A DNA stretch of 64,000 nucleotides from Bacteroidota bacterium (GTDB lineage: Bacteria; Bacteroidota; Bacteroidia; UKL13-3): NCBI GenBank assembly GCA_027488905.1, contig JAIYAT010000020.1, positions 310,490-374,489 of the forward strand, in the 5' to 3' direction. The notes beneath the pieces were generated by a model. That model was not told where the DNA came from, searched no databases, and saw nothing but the letters and a program-made list of their open reading frames with translations. The translations under genes and the position numbers were made by a program. How positions within the stretch are numbered: position 1 is the first letter of the stretch; every line of letters begins with the position of its first letter. This document shows positions 7,898-31,088 of this stretch, one piece after another.

Positions 7898-8275
7898 TTA
7901 TTTAGTTACCTTCTTTTTACCAGCAACTGTTTTACGTTTACCTTTACGAGTGCGTGAATTTGTGCGAGTACGTTGTCCGCGAACTGGCAATCCTTTACGA
8001 TGACGTAATCCTCTGTAACAACCAATGTCCATAAGACGCTTGATGTTCAATTGACGTTCAGAGCGAAGTTCTCCTTCAACAGTTACACCTTCTGTAATGA
8101 ATTTACGAATAGCATTTAACTCTTCGTCATTCCATTCACTTACTTTTTTGTCCCATGATACGTTACAACTGGTCAATATATGTTGAGCAGTTGAGCGACC
8201 AATACCGAAGATGTAGGTTAAACCTATTTCTCCTCTTTTGTTTTTGGGTAAATCTATACCTGATATACGAGCCAT
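7898..8275 (-). CDS. rpsM: 30S ribosomal protein S13
   Basis: The 125-residue protein has the helix-two-turn-helix region ([16 protein letters not shown]), the conserved [20 protein letters not shown] and a basic tail. S13 sits in the 30S head and contacts P-site tRNA and L5. It follows rpmJ by 9 bases. Confidence 0.98.
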
Positions 8276-8284
8276 ATTACTTTA

Positions 8285-8401
8285 TTATCCTTGACGTTGT
8301 TTAAACTTAGGGTTCTTTTTGTTGATAACGTAAACTCTTCCTTTACGTTTAACAATGATGCAGTCTTCACTGCGCTTCTTTACAGATGCTCTGATCTTCA
8401 T
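8285..8401 (-). CDS. rpmJ: 50S ribosomal protein L36, zinc-free form
   Basis: This 38-residue protein ([14 protein letters not shown] at the start, KFKQRQG at the end) aligns with canonical L36 without gaps except in the last third. The zinc ligands are mostly lost: position 11 is Ser, 14 stays Cys, 27 is Asn, and the C-terminal His is Phe. It is therefore the Cys-minus paralogue that needs no zinc. It lies between infA (12-base gap) and rpsM. Confidence 0.97.
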
Positions 8402-8413
8402 TTTTGCCAGTTT

Positions 8414-8632
8414 TTATTTATACCTGTATATAATTCTTCCTTTACTTAAGTCATATGGCGACATTTCTATCGACACTTTATCTCCTGGTAAAATTTTAAT
8501 ATAATGCATTCTCATTTTACCTGAGATATGGGCAATCACTTCGTGCCCATTTTCTAATTGCACTCTGAACATTGCATTACTCAGAGATTCTGTTATTGTT
8601 CCGTCTTGTTTTATCAGCGATTGCTTTGGCAT
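8414..8632 (-). CDS. infA: Translation initiation factor IF-1
   Basis: The 72-residue OB-fold protein has the usual length and core ([20 protein letters not shown], then RIIYRYK). IF-1 occupies the 30S A site during initiation. The gene has its own promoter just upstream (8652-8681), so infA to rplQ can be transcribed independently of secY. No map or adk gene lies between secY and infA. Confidence 0.98.
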
Positions 8633-8651
8633 ATTGTTAGAAAAAGGGGAG

Positions 8652-8681
8652 CAAAAATACGTAATATTTTTATAATATCAA
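8652..8681 (-). promoter_or_regulatory. Bacteroidota-type promoter for infA-rpmJ-rpsM-rpsK-rpsD-rpoA-rplQ
   Basis: On the minus strand TTG (8681-8679), 19 bases, then TATTTTTG (8659-8652) match the -33/-7 consensus TTG-N19-21-TAnnTTTG. The site lies in the 62-bp gap between secY and infA, about 20 bases before the infA start. Confidence 0.75.
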
Positions 8682-8694
8682 CGAAATAATTACT

Positions 8695-10056
8695 TTATAC
8701 CAAAGATCCTGCTGCTTGTCGTCCTTTTATTCTACCGCTCTTCATCAAACCATCATAGTGACGCATCATTAAATGACTCTCTATTTGCTGTAAGGTATCT
8801 AAAACCACACCAACTAAGATGAGTAAAGAAGTACCTCCGTAAAACTGAGCAAACTGGCTATTGATGTTAAAAATGTTTGCTAAAGATGGAAGAATTGCTA
8901 CAAATGCTAAGAAAAATGCACCTGGTAATGTAATTCTAGACATCACATTATCAATGAAATCTGCAGTAGCCTTACCAGGTTTTACACCAGGGATAAATCC
9001 ACCGTTTCTTTTCATTTCATCAGAGATTTGATTAGCATTTACAGTAATAGCAGTATAAAAGTACGTAAACAAGATTATTAGTGTTGCAAAAGTTAGGTTA
9101 TAAACCCAACCCATTGGATTGATAAAAGCACCCATTACCCCTTGCATAGTTTCATAATCTGGGAAGAATTGTGCAACCGTGCTAGGAATGAACATTAATG
9201 CTTGAGCAAAGATGATAGGCATTACTCCAGCAGCGTTAACCTTTAAAGGGATATACTGTCTTACACCACCATATTGCTTATTACCAACAATCCTTTTTGC
9301 GTATTGTACAGGTATTTTTCGGGTACCTTGAACCAATAGGATTGTAATCATAATTACGGCGAATAACACAGCTAACTCTACCAAGAATATCACCAATCCT
9401 CCACCTGTTTCGCCTAATTTAAAATTAAACTCTTTAACCAATGCTTCAGGCAATCTTGCTATGATACCAATCATAATGATTAAAGAAATACCATTGCCAA
9501 TTCCCTTTTCAGTAATTCTTTCACCTAACCACATTACAAACATGGTGCTTGAGGTTAAGACAACTACTGAACTCAACATAAACATGAAGTTAGAAATCAC
9601 CTCTGGATTAGTAACTGAGATAATTGCTTGAGGATTTTCTGTTCTTAAATTAATAAGGAAACCAATTGACTGAACTGCTGTAATTACAATAGTTAAATAT
9701 CTGGTTATCTGATTAATTTTACGTCTTCCATCTTCACCTTCTTTTTGAAGTCTTTGAAAAGAAGGAACAGCTAAACTCAATAGCTGCACAACAATTGATG
9801 CCGAAATATAAGGCATGATACCAAGTGCGAAGATTGAGCCCCTTGCGAAAGCACCACCTGCAAAAGTATTAATCAAACCAAAAATACCACCTTCTGCTTG
9901 TTGAGCAGAACCTTCTAACATGTTTGGATCTACACCTGGGAGGGTAACATACGTACCCAAACGGTAGGCAAGTAACATCCAGAATGTAATAAGCAACTTG
10001 TATCTAAGTTCCTCAATTCTGAATATATTTTGAAATGTTTCAATTAGTTTCTTCAC
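8695..10056 (-). CDS. secY: Protein translocase subunit SecY
   Basis: This 453-residue inner-membrane protein forms the Sec channel. Ten hydrophobic segments can be counted. The family motifs GIMPYISASIVVQLL (after the first plug region) and YAKRIVGNKQYGG (cytosolic loop) are present. It follows rplO by 20 bases as in spc operons and is the last gene before the infA promoter. Confidence 0.98.
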   Translation of the reverse strand: MKKLIETFQNIFRIEELRYKLLITFWMLLAYRLGTYVTLPGVDPNMLEGSAQQAEGGIFGLINTFAGGAFARGSIFALGIMPYISASIVVQLLSLAVPSFQRLQKEGEDGRRKINQITRYLTIVITAVQSIGFLINLRTENPQAIISVTNPEVISNFMFMLSSVVVLTSSTMFVMWLGERITEKGIGNGISLIIMIGIIARLPEALVKEFNFKLGETGGGLVIFLVELAVLFAVIMITILLVQGTRKIPVQYAKRIVGNKQYGGVRQYIPLKVNAAGVMPIIFAQALMFIPSTVAQFFPDYETMQGVMGAFINPMGWVYNLTFATLIILFTYFYTAITVNANQISDEMKRNGGFIPGVKPGKATADFIDNVMSRITLPGAFFLAFVAILPSLANIFNINSQFAQFYGGTSLLILVGVVLDTLQQIESHLMMRHYDGLMKSGRIKGRQAAGSLV

Positions 10057-10076
10057 CGGTCGGGAATATTAAATAA

Positions 10077-10523
10077 TTATTTACTTGTAATTGAACCTCC
10101 AGCTGCTTCAATTGCTTTCTGCGCAGCTTCTGAAAACTTATCAGCTTTAATTTCTAACGCAGCTTTAATTTCACCACGTCCTAAAATTTTCACTAGATCA
10201 TTCTTTCCAATCAATCCATTGTCTCTTAAAACAGATGAATCAATTTTACTTATTCCTTTATCGGCAAGTTCTTGAAGTTTATCTAAGTTAATTGGAGCGT
10301 ACTCAACCCTATTAAGGTTTTTAAAACCAAACTTAGGTATACGACGATACAATGGCATCTGTCCACCTTCAAAACCTCTTTTTGTACTTGTTCCACTTCT
10401 AGAACCAGCACCTTTATGACCACGAGAAGCGGTTCCACCTTTTCCACTACCTTCTCCTCGACCTAACCTTTTACCTTCTCTATGAGTTGAACCAGGAGCT
10501 GGCTTTAATGTATGTAATTTCAT
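10077..10523 (-). CDS. rplO: 50S ribosomal protein L15
   Basis: The 148 residues show the Gly/Arg-rich N-terminal extension (GKRLGRGEGSGKGGTASRGH) and the later core with FEGGQMPLYRRIPKFGF. L15 is a late-assembly protein that threads into 23S rRNA. It lies between rpmD and secY. Confidence 0.98.
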   Translation of the reverse strand: MKLHTLKPAPGSTHREGKRLGRGEGSGKGGTASRGHKGAGSRSGTSTKRGFEGGQMPLYRRIPKFGFKNLNRVEYAPINLDKLQELADKGISKIDSSVLRDNGLIGKNDLVKILGRGEIKAALEIKADKFSEAAQKAIEAAGGSITSK

Positions 10524-10534
10524 GTCTGGTCCTT

Positions 10535-10714
10535 TTAGATTTTTTCAACTTTTAACAAATGAGAAACTTTGTTGATCATACCCATAATTTGTGGTGTAGC
10601 TTCAACCTCTTTTACTTGATGAAGCTTAGTAAACCCAAGGGCACGAACGGTGCGCTTTTGATCTTCTTTACGGTCGATGGCGCTCTTTATTTGTGTAACT
10701 CTTAACTTTTCCAT
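10535..10714 (-). CDS. rpmD: 50S ribosomal protein L30
   Basis: The 59-residue protein (MEKLRVTQIKSAIDRKEDQK at the start, ALGFTKLHQVKEVEAT in the middle) has the L30 fold order and usual length. The start is ATG at 10714. It sits 4 bases after rpsE and 11 bases before rplO. Confidence 0.97.
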   Translation of the reverse strand: MEKLRVTQIKSAIDRKEDQKRTVRALGFTKLHQVKEVEATPQIMGMINKVSHLLKVEKI

Positions 10715-10718
10715 CGTA

Positions 10719-11243
10719 TTATTCTTGTCCGTTAAAAACTTTCTTTAAACTAATTCCTCTTTGTTGTGCAATAGTATATGCATCACGCATTTCTAATAAA
10801 GCGTTAATGGTAGCTTTCACCACATTGTGCGGGTTAGAAGATCCTTTTGACTTTGCCAAAACGTCTGTAACTCCAGCACTTTCCAAAACTGCACGCATCG
10901 CACCACCTGCAATAACACCTGTTCCATGCGCAGCAGGCTTTAAAAATACACGACCACCGCCATATTTACCAAGTTGCTCATGAGGTACAGTGCCTTTTAA
11001 AACTGGCACTTTAACCAAATTTTTCTTAGCATCATCTACTCCTTTAGAAATAGCATCTGTTACTTCCAAAGATTTTCCTAAGCCATAACCAACTATACCA
11101 TTCCCATCACCTACTACCACTAAAGCTGAAAAACTAAATGTTCTACCACCCTTTGTAACTTTAGCTACGCGGTTTATAGAAACAACTTTTTCCTTTAGTT
11201 CAACATCAGTTGTTCTTACTTTTTTTATGTTCGCTGTTGACAT
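10719..11243 (-). CDS. rpsE: 30S ribosomal protein S5
   Basis: The 174 residues include the double-stranded RNA-binding half ([20 protein letters not shown]) and the [20 protein letters not shown] loop. S5 shapes the mRNA entry channel and translational accuracy. It lies between rplR and rpmD, 14 bases after rplR. Confidence 0.98.
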
Positions 11244-11257
11244 ACTCTTTCTTACAA

Positions 11258-11602
11258 TTAAAATTTAAGACCACCTTCACGAGCGCCTTCAGCAAGCGCC
11301 TTAACCCTACCATGATAAAGGTAACCACCTCTATCAAAAACAACTTCTGAAATACCTGCGGCAAGTGCTTTTTCAGCTAAACTTTTTCCAACAAGTACTG
11401 ATGAATCACCTTTTGCTACCTTTTCTGTCAATGCTCTAGATGAACTTGCAATTAAAGTAACACCAGCTATATCATCAATCAATTGAGCATAAATGAATCT
11501 ATTACTCCTAAAAACAGATAGACGTGGCTTCTGAGCTGTACCAGTTACGCGGCTGCGGATACGGGCACGAATTTTTCCTCTTCTTGAATCTTTATTAAAC
11601 AT
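11258..11602 (-). CDS. rplR: 50S ribosomal protein L18
   Basis: The 114 residues contain [18 protein letters not shown] and end in [21 protein letters not shown]18 carries 5S rRNA to the large subunit with L5. The length is normal, and it sits 9 bases after rplF. Confidence 0.98.
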
Positions 11603-11611
11603 AGCTCAATA

Positions 11612-12166
11612 TTATTTAGAAGCAGTTTTACCTGCTTTTCTTCTCAACACTTCATTTACAAACTTAATACCCTTGCCTTTATATGGTTCTGGTGCGCGCA
11701 ATGACCTAATCTTTGCTGCTACTTGACCAACTAATTGCTTATCAATTCCTTCTAAAGTTATGATTGGGTTTTTACCTTTTTCTTGTTCAGTTTTTACTTG
11801 AACTTCTTTGGGTACTTCAAAATAAATATGATGTGAATATCCAAGGGTTAAATCTAAAATATTTCCATCATTAGTAGCTTTGTAACCAACACCCACCAAT
11901 TCTTGTCTTTTTGAATATCCTTGAGTAACACCCGTAACCATATTGTTTACAAGTGACCTATAAAGGCCATGAAGTGCTCTATGGCGCTTATGGTCTGTAG
12001 CTCTAGTAAAAGAAATGATACCATCGGTAACATCTAACTTAATATCTGGATCCATTTGTTGCGTTAATTGACCTTTTGGACCTTTAACTGAAACAAGATT
12101 AGAAGAAGAAACTACCACTTCAACACCTGAAGGAACTTTAATAATTGCTTTACCTATACGTGACAT
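11612..12166 (-). CDS. rplF: 50S ribosomal protein L6
   Basis: The 184 residues start MSRIGKAIIKVPSGVEV and hold both halves of L6, including the C-terminal signature PEPYKGKGIKF. L6 lies near the GTPase centre. It sits 16 bases after rpsH. Confidence 0.98.
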   Translation of the reverse strand: MSRIGKAIIKVPSGVEVVVSSSNLVSVKGPKGQLTQQMDPDIKLDVTDGIISFTRATDHKRHRALHGLYRSLVNNMVTGVTQGYSKRQELVGVGYKATNDGNILDLTLGYSHHIYFEVPKEVQVKTEQEKGKNPIITLEGIDKQLVGQVAAKIRSLRAPEPYKGKGIKFVNEVLRRKAGKTASK

Positions 12167-27120: not shown

Positions 27121-27843
27121 ATGGAACATTTAAAAATTGCGAGCGACAATTACGTCGCCTTCACGTTCTTTATCGGAACAATGGCCATGATGGCCGCGTC
27201 TGTTTTCTTTTTTATGGAACTAAACAATACTTCTCCAAAATGGAGAACTTCTGTGTTAGTTTCTGGCCTTATCACTTTTATTGCCGCAGTGCATTATTAT
27301 TACATGAGAGGTTACAATCTTTCAACTGGAGAGTCACCAACTTTCTTCCGTTATGTAGATTGGATTCTTACTGTGCCTTTGATGTGTGTTGAGTTTTACT
27401 TAATCACCAAAAAAGCAGGTGCTAAAATTGCCCTACTTTGGAAATTGATTTTTGCTTCTTTAGTAATGTTAGTTACAGGATACTTTGGCGAAACCATCGA
27501 CCGTGACAATAGCGTTATGTGGGGCGTAATCTCAGGTGCTGCGTATTTCTACATTGTTTACTTAATTTGGTTTGGAGAAGTTGCTCAATTATCACAAACT
27601 GCTGGTCCGGAAGTAGCAAAAGCTACCCGTGTATTAGGTTGGTTTGTATTAGTAGGTTGGGCCATCTATCCTTTAGGTTACATCTTAGGAACTCCAGGTG
27701 GATTGTTTGGAATGCAATTAGTTTCTGACCCAGCTGCTGCTGCGCACTCAATGGACATCGTTTACAACATTGCTGATGCCATTAACAAAATTGGTTTTGG
27801 TTTAGTAATCTATGGTTTGTCTAGAAGTGGTAACGATAATTAA
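27121..27843 (+). CDS. Proteorhodopsin, light-driven proton pump, green-tuned
   Basis: The 240-residue protein has seven hydrophobic helices. Helix C reads RYVDWILTVPLMCVEF, giving the proton-pump triad Asp80 (acceptor), Thr84 and Glu91 (donor). His58 in AAVHYYYMR matches the His that pairs with the acceptor in proteorhodopsins. Lys223 in ADAINKIGFG is the retinal Schiff-base site. The spectral-tuning position is Met88, the residue found in green-absorbing flavobacterial pumps. By eye, helix E places Tyr143/Phe144 where carotenoid-antenna rhodopsins have Gly, so an antenna seems unlikely. A strong terminator follows, and the retinal-synthesis gene lies next. Confidence 0.96.
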   Translation: MEHLKIASDNYVAFTFFIGTMAMMAASVFFFMELNNTSPKWRTSVLVSGLITFIAAVHYYYMRGYNLSTGESPTFFRYVDWILTVPLMCVEFYLITKKAGAKIALLWKLIFASLVMLVTGYFGETIDRDNSVMWGVISGAAYFYIVYLIWFGEVAQLSQTAGPEVAKATRVLGWFVLVGWAIYPLGYILGTPGGLFGMQLVSDPAAAAHSMDIVYNIADAINKIGFGLVIYGLSRSGNDN

Positions 27844-27875: not shown

Positions 27876-27916
27876 AAAGGGAGGTTGCACTCATTGCAGT
27901 GCTTCCTCCCTTTTTT
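27876..27916 (+). terminator. Strong intrinsic terminator after the rhodopsin gene
   Basis: AAAGGGAGG pairs with CCTCCCTTT, with an inner GCACT/AGTGC stem, and is followed by a run of six T residues. It lies 33 bases after the rhodopsin stop and 31 bases before the cyclase-dioxygenase gene, so the two genes are at least partly separate transcripts. Confidence 0.9.
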
Positions 27917-27947: not shown

Positions 27948-29960
27948 ATGGAAGCAAATAATTTTTTTGTTCGGGTTGAACCAAGCGTTAGATATGATTA
28001 TATATTTTGCGGTACTGGGGCATCAGCTTCGCTATTAATTCTAGCGCTACAAAGAAATAATTTACTTCTAAATAAAAAGGTACTCCTTATAGACCCAGAA
28101 AACAAAAACAGAAAAGATAAAACCTTTTGCTTTTGGTCTAAAGAGGAAGAACCCATTACTCAAAATTTAAAACCTTTGATTTCAAAATCCTGGGATACGA
28201 TAGCGCATACACCTTCAGAACAATTAAGTCTTTCACCGTTTAGCTACAATCATGTAGATAGCATTGACCTGTACAATAAAATTCAATCACTTGCAGAAAT
28301 TCATCATTGGGATAAAATAGTTGGATACGTTACAGGGTTTGCCAAAGAAGCCGAAGAAACTTTTGTAGTAGTAAATAACACTAGGATAGCTGGTCAGAAT
28401 ATTTTTGATTCGAGACCACCTGTTCACCAGAAAGCACAAACAAATGAGGTGCATATCTACCAAAGTTTTATAGGATGGATAATTGAAACCGAAAGTGCTG
28501 TTTTGAACCCAGAAGTATTTAAGTTTATGGACTTCAACATTGCGCAACAAGGATTTACGCAATTTGTATATGTGTTGCCGTTTACTTCAAGCAAAGCCCT
28601 TGTTGAAGTTACTCGGTTTGGGTCAAACCAAATTAATACAACAGAAGCAGAAGAAATACTAAAAGATTATATTTTAAATTGTTACGGCAACTTTAAAATA
28701 ATAGATATTGAAAGGGGCAGTATTCCTATGAGTAACACAAAAATTGAAAGTGAAACCACAGAAGGAGTTATCAACCTAGGGGCTAGAAATTATAATATTA
28801 AACCGAGCACTGGGTATGCCTTTAAAAATATGTATTACCAAGCATTGGCAATAACTGAAACCCTAAAAAGTGGCGGTAACCTTAGTGCTTTTAACAAAGA
28901 CCACCACAATACTTTTAAAGGGCGTTTTGCCTTTTATGATTCTTTACTTTTGGATATTCTAAAAAACAATCCAAGCTATGGGAAACCTATTTTTATTGAA
29001 CTTTTGAAAAATGTAGATACCAAAACAACTTTAAAGTTTCTAGATGAACAAACCAATTTGATTGAGGAGATTTCTATTTTCATGCAATTGCCATGGAAAC
29101 CTTTTTTGCAAGCCTTGTATAAAAAAATCATTTCTACTACTTTGGTTCAACCACTTATACTATTATTTACTACCCTGCTTTTTGTACTGTTAAATAAATT
29201 CTCTGCTTTACAAAATGTAGTTGGATATGCATTGTTTTTCATAGGAATGGTTGCTGTTGGCATTCCGCATGGAGCAGTAGACCACTTGCTTGAAACTGGC
29301 AATTGGGACCTAAAAAAAGCACCACTTTTTGTATTGAAGTACTTACTGTTAGCAGCATTGATGGGATTATTTTGGTATTTTATTCCACCCATGGCGTTAA
29401 CCGCATTTCTGATATACTCGAGTTGGCACTTTGGCGAAGCAGATGGCAAAAAGTGGCACTTTAACCCTTTAACTTCTTTGCTTTGGGGAGCCTCAGTACT
29501 AGCGTTTATATTAGGAACTCATGTAGATGAAGCCAATACTATATTAGCTGGCATGGGTAACATCATATTGCCATTTTCTGTTCCGGTTTGGGCACTATTA
29601 CCTTGGATGATTTGGGCATTGTTTCGAAAACAAACTGGATTTGTGCTTACCCTTATTTGGTTGAGTTTGTCGAGTCAAATTCCGCTAATGTTGTCGTTTG
29701 GACTTTACTTCATAGGACAGCATAGCTTTGCAAGTTGGAAGCATTTACAATTGCATTTAAAGATAAGCAACAAAATCATTTGGCTACAATCGCTTCCATT
29801 TCATTTAGGAGCTTGGTTGATATTAGGATTATTCTATTTCTTTTGGCCTTTGCAATCTGAATTTAATCAAAGCCAGCAATGGGGAGTTTTCTTCATTTTC
29901 ATTGCTTGTATTAGCTTCCCGCATGTCATTGCCATGCATTTGATGTATAGGAAAAAATAG
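27948..29960 (+). CDS. Lycopene cyclase (CrtY) fused to Blh-type beta-carotene 15,15'-dioxygenase
   Basis: This 670-residue protein joins two pathway steps. Residues about 14-385 are a CrtY-type cyclase: an FAD-binding start (YDYIFCGTGASASLLILAL), QSFIGW at 172-177, PFTSSKALVEVTRF at 211-224 and KPSTGYAF at 285-292. Residues about 395-670 are a multi-helix Brp/Blh membrane domain with the iron-ligand His motifs GIPHGAVDH (His441, His446), SSWHFGEAD (His494), GQHSFASWKH (His592) and FPHVIAMH (His659, His664). The product should convert lycopene to beta-carotene and cleave that to retinal for the neighbouring rhodopsin. There is no stop or frame break between the halves. Lycopene must be made by genes outside the window. 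Confidence 0.93.
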   Translation: MEANNFFVRVEPSVRYDYIFCGTGASASLLILALQRNNLLLNKKVLLIDPENKNRKDKTFCFWSKEEEPITQNLKPLISKSWDTIAHTPSEQLSLSPFSYNHVDSIDLYNKIQSLAEIHHWDKIVGYVTGFAKEAEETFVVVNNTRIAGQNIFDSRPPVHQKAQTNEVHIYQSFIGWIIETESAVLNPEVFKFMDFNIAQQGFTQFVYVLPFTSSKALVEVTRFGSNQINTTEAEEILKDYILNCYGNFKIIDIERGSIPMSNTKIESETTEGVINLGARNYNIKPSTGYAFKNMYYQALAITETLKSGGNLSAFNKDHHNTFKGRFAFYDSLLLDILKNNPSYGKPIFIELLKNVDTKTTLKFLDEQTNLIEEISIFMQLPWKPFLQALYKKIISTTLVQPLILLFTTLLFVLLNKFSALQNVVGYALFFIGMVAVGIPHGAVDHLLETGNWDLKKAPLFVLKYLLLAALMGLFWYFIPPMALTAFLIYSSWHFGEADGKKWHFNPLTSLLWGASVLAFILGTHVDEANTILAGMGNIILPFSVPVWALLPWMIWALFRKQTGFVLTLIWLSLSSQIPLMLSFGLYFIGQHSFASWKHLQLHLKISNKIIWLQSLPFHLGAWLILGLFYFFWPLQSEFNQSQQWGVFFIFIACISFPHVIAMHLMYRKK

Positions 29961-30095: not shown

Positions 30096-31088
30096 ATGAA
30101 AGCAGCTGTGCATACCGAATACGGACCGCCTGAAGTGGTTCGAATCATGGAATTACCTAAACCCATACCCAAAGACAATGAAATTCTGGTTAGGGTGTAT
30201 GCCGCTACTGTAAACCGCACCGATGCAGGATTTAGAAGCGCGGTTTATGTTATCTCAAGACTCTTTAGTGGTTTGTTTAAACCTAAGCAACAAATCTTGG
30301 GTTGCGAATTTGCAGGTGTTGTGGCAGCTTGTGGCAAATCGGTTAAAAATTTCAAAGTAGGCCACCGTGTTTTTGGCTACAATGATGAAACCTTTGGGGC
30401 ACATGCAGAATACCTAACCATAGCCGAAACGGATGCTGTTACCCATATGCCTATTCATTTTAGCATGGAAGAAGCTGCCGCCATTGGCGAAGGTGCCCAT
30501 TATGCCTTGTTTAACATTAGAGCTGCCAAAGTTCAAAAAGGTGAAAAAGTTCTAGTGTATGGCGCAACTGGTGCTATTGGCTCTGCTGCAGTGCAACTTC
30601 TTAAGTATTTTGGGGCCAAGGTTACAGCAGTTTGCAATACCAAAAATGTTGCGCTTGTAAAAGGCCTAGGCGCCAATATTGTAATCGACTATCAAACACA
30701 AGATTTTACAGATACCAAGGAACGCTATTCCTTTATTTTTGATGCCGTAGGCAAAAGCTCCTTCGGTGCATGCAAACCCTTGCTTACTCCGCATGGTATT
30801 TACATTTCTACCGAGCTTGGTAAACGCTCTGAAAATATTTTTCTAGCTTTGATTACTCCTTTATTTAAAGGTAAAAAAGTGCTCTTTCCTATTCCAATAA
30901 TGAACAAAGTGATGCTAGTGTTCTTAAAAGACTTGGCAGAAGGAGGGTATTTTAGTCCGGTTATTGACAGAGAATACAAGTTAAACCAAATAGTAGAAGC
31001 GTACCGATATGTTGAATCGGAGCAAAAAACGGGCAATGTGATTATAAGTATGGTTAAGGAGGAACAAAGCGAATCACCTTTTAATTAA
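30096..31088 (+). CDS. Medium-chain dehydrogenase/reductase (quinone oxidoreductase-like)
   Basis: The 330-residue NAD(P)-dependent oxidoreductase has an N-terminal GroES-like fold (LGCEFAGVVAACGKSVKNFK) and a Rossmann fold with VYGATGAIGSAAVQLLKYFG near 151-170. The structural and catalytic zinc Cys clusters of alcohol dehydrogenases are absent, so it belongs to the zinc-free quinone-reductase branch. The substrate is unknown. It is not clearly linked to the carotenoid genes upstream; a 135-bp gap separates them. Confidence 0.85.
   Translation: MKAAVHTEYGPPEVVRIMELPKPIPKDNEILVRVYAATVNRTDAGFRSAVYVISRLFSGLFKPKQQILGCEFAGVVAACGKSVKNFKVGHRVFGYNDETFGAHAEYLTIAETDAVTHMPIHFSMEEAAAIGEGAHYALFNIRAAKVQKGEKVLVYGATGAIGSAAVQLLKYFGAKVTAVCNTKNVALVKGLGANIVIDYQTQDFTDTKERYSFIFDAVGKSSFGACKPLLTPHGIYISTELGKRSENIFLALITPLFKGKKVLFPIPIMNKVMLVFLKDLAEGGYFSPVIDREYKLNQIVEAYRYVESEQKTGNVIISMVKEEQSESPFN

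What the first reader, a model, noticed from the sequence alone, without database searches (positions are those of the whole stretch)
27948..29960. Single gene for lycopene cyclase and retinal-forming dioxygenase
crtY and blh are normally separate genes. Here one 670-residue frame holds an FAD-binding cyclase and a Blh membrane domain with all expected His motifs and no break. Channelled conversion of lycopene to retinal, beside the rhodopsin gene, would avoid beta-carotene build-up.
Basis: partly seen in the sequence, partly recalled or inferred. Interest (0 to 1): 0.72.

Follow-up and report, generated by a model that had tools for sequence, protein, structure and literature searches.

The report
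Fused lycopene cyclase and retinal-forming enzyme
One gene beside a light-driven proton pump joins the last two enzymes of retinal synthesis into a single protein; it is a real, widespread and apparently unnamed gene fusion of Bacteroidota that probably makes the pump's retinal separately from the cell's other carotenoids.

Summary
Window 27948-29960 (+) is one uninterrupted 670-residue frame: a complete CrtY-type lycopene cyclase (PF05834) followed by a complete Blh/Brp beta-carotene 15,15'-dioxygenase (PF15461), 105 nt downstream of a proteorhodopsin gene. It is no assembly error: 47 homologous fusions were read from other Bacteroidota, both halves are under purifying selection, and both fit one fusion event. 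It is not rare: 33 of 72 blh-positive genomes in a 395-genome class sample carry it. The likely ancestral state survives as overlapping crtY-blh gene pairs.

In the sample, 38 of 40 genomes with fused or adjacent crtY-blh have a second cyclase, against 0 of 18 with blh away from crtY. I read the fusion as a private retinal branch off the lycopene pool. Channelling is plausible but untested. Both halves are known enzymes and eukaryotic Thecamonas has an analogous fusion, so this is a new variant of a known kind. No description of a CrtY-Blh fusion was found in the open papers searched.

The parts
27121..27843 (+). Proteorhodopsin (240 aa), proton-pump motif D80/T84/E91, green-type M88, Schiff-base Lys, glycine G135 at the apparent antenna fenestration position
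   Evidence: PF01036 146 bits; nearest solved chains are 9jov/9jou proteorhodopsins; residues conserved in all 61 opsins compared
27876..27913 (+). Terminator-like hairpin followed by a T run, between opsin and fusion gene; probable attenuator
   Evidence: Sequence and fold; such a hairpin lies in 24 of 26 opsin-to-fusion gaps against 21 of 120 other co-directional gaps
27948..29960 (+). crtY-blh fusion gene, 670 aa
27996..29114 (+). CrtY-type lycopene cyclase half (residues 17-389): FAD motif (G22, G24), DKTFCFW, invariant catalytic-type Glu E220
   Evidence: PF05834; residue table; flavoprotein fold, best matches geranylgeranyl reductases and a viral lycopene cyclase
29115..29243 (+). Junction (residues 390-432): natural CrtY C-terminus, basic stretch KK, then the first transmembrane helix of Blh
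   Evidence: Comparison with C- and N-termini of unfused neighbours; helices 383-395, 400-414, 420-443 in the model
29244..29948 (+). Blh/Brp beta-carotene 15,15'-dioxygenase half (residues 433-667): His H441, H494, H592, H659; fusion-type H525, E528, W597
   Evidence: PF15461, TIGR03753; residue table

Best explanation
The gene encodes a bifunctional membrane protein. The N-terminal FAD cyclase closes both ends of lycopene to give beta-carotene. The C-terminal membrane dioxygenase cleaves beta-carotene centrally into retinal, which goes to the proteorhodopsin encoded 105 nt upstream. It arose once, by fusion of an overlapping crtY-blh gene pair. In nearly all of its hosts it is a second cyclase dedicated to retinal, while an unrelated cyclase (CrtYcd, or a stand-alone CrtY) with CruF, CrtD and CrtZ makes the bulk hydroxylated, probably monocyclic, xanthophyll. 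A terminator-like hairpin between opsin and fusion probably lets through only part of the transcription, giving much opsin and little enzyme. Shown: the fusion, its conservation, consistency with a single origin, intact motifs, second cyclase, rhodopsin linkage and hairpin. Inferred: both activities, exclusive use for retinal, attenuation. Open: whether beta-carotene is handed over inside the protein.
For: Both full domains in one frame. AlphaFold2 model of the whole chain: mean pLDDT 89.6, pTM 0.79, complete cyclase and all Blh helices. E220 (CrtY) and H441/H494/H592 invariant (gaps aside) in fused, adjacent and unlinked homologues, H659 in all but one row. dN/dS 0.18 in both halves. Fusion Blh halves form one clade, SH-aLRT 99, the few unfused rows inside being mostly truncated or frameshifted. 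CrtY halves held as one clade fit better than the free tree, AU p 0.75. Rhodopsin in 46 of 47 fusion genomes; within the family 19/19 with fusion vs 3/15 without, p 8e-7. Opsin directly beside the fusion in most loci, and no crtB or crtI at those screened. Second cyclase in 38/40 fused or adjacent genomes vs 0/18 unlinked, p 4e-13. Five fusion genomes lacking CrtYcd carry a stand-alone CrtY instead. Own CrtYcd, CrtZ-like and CruF-like genes on C25; CrtD, CrtI, CrtB, Idi-like on C1. The f89 fusion genomes with a single cyclase also lack CruF and CrtD. Hairpins.
Against: No activity data. The cyclase half misses the TIGR01789 and TIGR01790 cut-offs (42.6 and 79.7 bits), so two-ended cyclisation rests on the family, not a curated model. 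The cyclase-count association has few phylogenetically independent contrasts (2, both in the expected direction). CruF and CrtD are also common in genomes with unlinked blh and a single cyclase, so one cyclase can serve both needs. G376 has CruF but the fusion as its only detected cyclase. In about a dozen loci the opsin is not next to the fusion.
Confidence: 0.8

Rival explanations
1. Physical channelling: beta-carotene passes from cyclase to dioxygenase inside the fused protein and never reaches the membrane pool.
For: Covalent link at the natural C- and N-termini, single origin and wide retention, fusion-only invariant residues H525, E528, W597, confident single-chain model.
Against: No tunnel or interface was measured. 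Unlinked, adjacent and fused arrangements all occur, so the link is not required. beta-carotene is membrane-soluble and both enzymes sit at the membrane. One fusion-type Blh seems to have lost its cyclase half (L210).
Confidence: 0.25
2. Only co-expression and stoichiometry: the fusion fixes a 1:1 ratio of two enzymes with no catalytic advantage, a by-product of losing the stop codon between overlapping genes.
For: Overlapping or touching out-of-frame crtY-blh pairs with gaps of -49 to +10 nt; the linker evolves faster than the domains.
Against: A single-origin fusion kept across 12 family-level groups with very few reversions suggests that the link itself is of use.
Confidence: 0.4
3. One half is inactive: the cyclase half is a relic or scaffold because the host has CrtYcd, and only Blh works.
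For: A second cyclase exists in most fusion genomes.
Against: Cyclase motifs are kept in 46-48 of 48 fusions, dN/dS is 0.18 in the cyclase half, and in f89 genomes the fusion is the only detected cyclase.
Confidence: 0.05
4. Assembly or sequencing artefact that removes a stop between two genes.
For: None found.
Against: Same architecture in 48 loci from many separately assembled genomes.
Confidence: 0.01

Closest known systems
[quoted passage not shown]
   Same: A lycopene cyclase and Blh in one polypeptide, with Blh C-terminal, proposed by its authors to yield retinal directly
   Different: Eukaryote; the cyclase there is the unrelated CrtYc/d type and CrtI and CrtB are included; here the cyclase is FAD-type CrtY alone and the host is bacterial
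Separate crtY and blh genes of marine proteorhodopsin operons, e.g. [quoted passage not shown]
   Same: Same two reactions serving a neighbouring proteorhodopsin
   Different: Separate genes within a full carotenoid operon; here only opsin and fusion are together, and crtB, crtI and an idi-like gene lie on another contig
Overlapping opsin-crtY-blh genes in other Bacteroidota (loci L108, L120, L125)
   Same: Same gene order and same second-cyclase pattern
   Different: Unfused, in different reading frames
Fusion-type lycopene cyclase of Algoriphagus (Tao 2006, title seen in the reference list of PMC2889829; that it is CrtYcd is from memory)
   Same: Probably the same family as the second cyclase of this genome, not the fusion itself
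   Different: Joins two cyclase domains, no dioxygenase

Membership tests
CrtY-type lycopene cyclase (PF05834) | Pfam model over curated cut-off, full length | tested here: met
   145 bits vs 23.4, profile 1-378 of 380
CrtY-type lycopene cyclase (PF05834) | FAD-binding glycine motif and conserved active-site Glu (E196 of Erwinia CrtY, from memory) | tested here: met
   G22, G24 in 46 of 48 fusions (gaps in 2); E220 in all fusions and all unfused homologues compared
CrtY-type lycopene cyclase (PF05834) | NCBIfam CrtY equivalog TIGR01789 over cut-off | tested here: not met
   42.6 bits vs 215.2; I therefore file it in the PF05834 family, not as the TIGR01789 equivalog
CrtY-type lycopene cyclase (PF05834) | Cyclises both ends of lycopene | not testable with these tools
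   Needs expression and HPLC
Blh/Brp beta-carotene 15,15'-dioxygenase | PF15461 and TIGR03753 over cut-off | tested here: met
   103.6 vs 28 bits; 113.1 vs 95.25 bits
Blh/Brp beta-carotene 15,15'-dioxygenase | Conserved His and multi-helix membrane fold | tested here: met
   H441, H494, H592 invariant (gaps aside) and H659 in all but one row; all-helical C-terminal half, block pLDDT 70-95
Blh/Brp beta-carotene 15,15'-dioxygenase | Retinal formed from beta-carotene | not testable with these tools
   Needs assay
Thecamonas-type carotenoid multifusion | CrtYc/d-type cyclase (PF18916) fused to Blh | tested here: not met
   The fusion's cyclase is PF05834; this genome's PF18916 protein is separate, on contig C25

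The most novel reading that the evidence does not exclude
Opsin plus CrtY-Blh fusion form a compact two-gene light-pump cassette that needs only lycopene from the host: a channelling enzyme makes retinal without a free beta-carotene pool, a built-in attenuator sets opsin above enzyme, and the cassette has moved between Bacteroidota families, leaving the host's own cyclase free for the xanthophyll that may serve as the pump's antenna.
Probability: 0.2. Interest if true: 0.72.

Novelty: new variant of a known kind. Interest (0 to 1): 0.52.

Why it matters
It gives retinal supply in many Bacteroidota a single genetic marker. It offers a testable case of metabolic insulation: two non-homologous cyclases in one cell, one tied to retinal. 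Gene surveys that count crtY and blh as separate genes will miscount it. A natural lycopene-to-retinal enzyme would also be a handy part for optogenetics and retinoid production in E. coli.

Tried and rejected
Artefact or hidden stop: rejected by 47 homologous fusions. Independent fusion events: not supported, both halves are consistent with one origin. Virus or phage origin: no relative in the phage collection or IMG/VR; the only viral hits are by structure, e.g. a ChoanoV1 lycopene cyclase. Solved structures by sequence: nothing meaningful for the fusion. CruF/CrtD (monocyclic bulk pathway) as a sufficient cause of the second cyclase: rejected, since unlinked single-cyclase genomes often have them too. 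The paper searches found no CrtY-Blh fusion; subscription papers and protein-architecture databases were not searchable, so an earlier description is possible.

Full report
What is there. Window 27948-29960 on the + strand is a single open frame of 670 residues; the opposite strand is full of stops. Pfam places Lycopene_cycl at residues 17-389 and BCD (Blh) at 433-667, each covering almost the whole profile. NCBIfam supports the Blh half over its cut-off but leaves the cyclase half below the stricter CrtY cut-offs. The gene starts 105 nt after a proteorhodopsin gene with proton-pump residues. The next downstream gene, an alcohol-dehydrogenase-like protein at 30096, has no evident link to carotenoids.

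It is a real family. One genome-contig scan gave 11 fusions at 49-92% identity, all from assemblies labelled as Bacteroidota groups. Of the 60 closest genomes 24 had matches, mostly full-length fusions. In a 395-genome sample of the class, 72 genomes have a blh match and in 33 it lies in a frame of 650-720 residues. Outside the class but inside the phylum three genomes of one genus have it. Forty-eight complete fusions of 634-702 aa were read, the window's own included. Selection is purifying: dN/dS 0.18 in each half and 0.39 in the linker.

How it arose. In several Bacteroidota crtY and blh are separate but overlapping or touching genes, in the order crtY then blh, sometimes with opsin directly upstream. 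The pairs are in different frames, so a small indel that removes the stop would fuse them. The window's junction lies at the natural CrtY end (motif IFxxLPxxPFLxAL) and keeps Blh's first membrane helix. Blh halves of fusions form one clade with SH-aLRT 99. Most unfused rows inside it are contig ends or a frameshift, and one (L210) appears to have lost its cyclase. CrtY halves held together give a better likelihood than the free search, AU p 0.75. The fusion tree needs 15 changes of family label for 12 families, and the window's genus appears in several distant places. That fits some transfer between families but does not prove it.

Active sites. In 48 fusions and in the unfused homologues E220 of the cyclase and H441, H494, H592 of Blh are invariant apart from gaps; H659 is kept in all but one row. 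H525, E528 and W597 are invariant only in fusions. The model of the full chain is confident (pLDDT 89.6, pTM 0.79). Its cyclase half resembles geranylgeranyl reductases and a viral lycopene cyclase.

Why a second cyclase matters. This genome has one other real lycopene cyclase, an unrelated CrtYcd-type protein on contig C25, next to a CrtZ-like hydroxylase and a CruF-like (PF04240) protein. CrtD, CrtI, CrtB and an Idi-like NUDIX protein lie on contig C1. From the known reactions of these families the bulk product is expected to be a monocyclic, hydroxylated carotenoid of the saproxanthin kind; this is inference. In the class sample 31 of 33 fusion genomes and 7 of 7 adjacent-pair genomes have a further cyclase, while all 18 tabulated genomes with blh away from crtY have exactly one (Fisher p 4e-13). 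Five fusion genomes without CrtYcd carry a stand-alone CrtY. The two exceptions are G315 (77% complete) and G376. Three genomes of family f89 have only the fusion and also lack CruF and CrtD. Caveats: relatedness leaves few independent contrasts, and CruF and CrtD also occur in many single-cyclase genomes. The simplest reading is that fused or adjacent crtY-blh is a self-contained retinal branch drawing on the lycopene pool.

Link to rhodopsin. 46 of 47 fusion genomes have a rhodopsin. Within the window's family it is 19 of 19 with fusion and 3 of 15 without. Opsin is usually directly upstream on the same strand, 42-155 nt away. No crtB or crtI was found at the fusion loci screened. All 61 opsins compared have the proton-pump residues, and a glycine at what I take, from memory and helix register, to be the carotenoid-antenna fenestration.

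Expression. Between opsin and fusion the window has a 38-base hairpin followed by T residues (27876-27913). A comparable hairpin lies in 24 of 26 opsin-to-fusion gaps and 11 of 12 opsin-to-unfused crtY or blh gaps, against 21 of 120 other co-directional gaps in the same loci. In several loci it ends 2-20 nt before the start codon, leaving no room for a promoter, so partial read-through is likely. This was not tested experimentally.

Fusion, domains and rhodopsin neighbourhood are confirmed, and the retinal role is well supported. Channelling remains a hypothesis. The stronger comparative claim is insulation of the retinal branch by a private cyclase. The open papers searched describe a fused cyclase-Blh only in Thecamonas, with a different cyclase type (PMC10016063), and none found describes CrtY-Blh.

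Noticed in passing
window 27876-27913: Terminator-like hairpin between opsin and fusion gene, recurrent at this position across opsin-retinal gene pairs (35 of 38 gaps vs 21 of 120 controls); probable attenuator.
   Followed up: partly
window 27121-27843, residue G135: Glycine at the apparent carotenoid-antenna (fenestration) position of the proteorhodopsin, conserved in all 61 opsins compared; may allow a hydroxylated carotenoid antenna.
   Followed up: partly
L190:782-2650 (own genome contig C25): Cluster of CrtYcd lycopene cyclase, CrtZ-like hydroxylase and CruF-like protein: the second, bulk carotenoid route.
   Followed up: yes
L107:3492-5586 and 8256-11658: CrtD with a MarR-type regulator on one strand; CrtI, CrtB and an Idi-like NUDIX gene on the other, with a TonB-receptor-like gene between.
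   Followed up: no
L210:2239-3087: Fusion-type Blh without a cyclase half in genome G253, which also has another blh; apparent loss of the CrtY half.
   Followed up: partly
L196:7646-10513: 956-residue frame with Blh at the C-terminus and about 650 residues with no Pfam match before it: another kind of Blh fusion elsewhere in the phylum.
   Followed up: partly
L007:577-4677: Opsin genes on both sides of a fusion gene in one Cryomorphaceae-labelled assembly.
   Followed up: no
L198:3556-5666: Fusion gene split by a frame change in G317; either assembly error or a real split.
   Followed up: no
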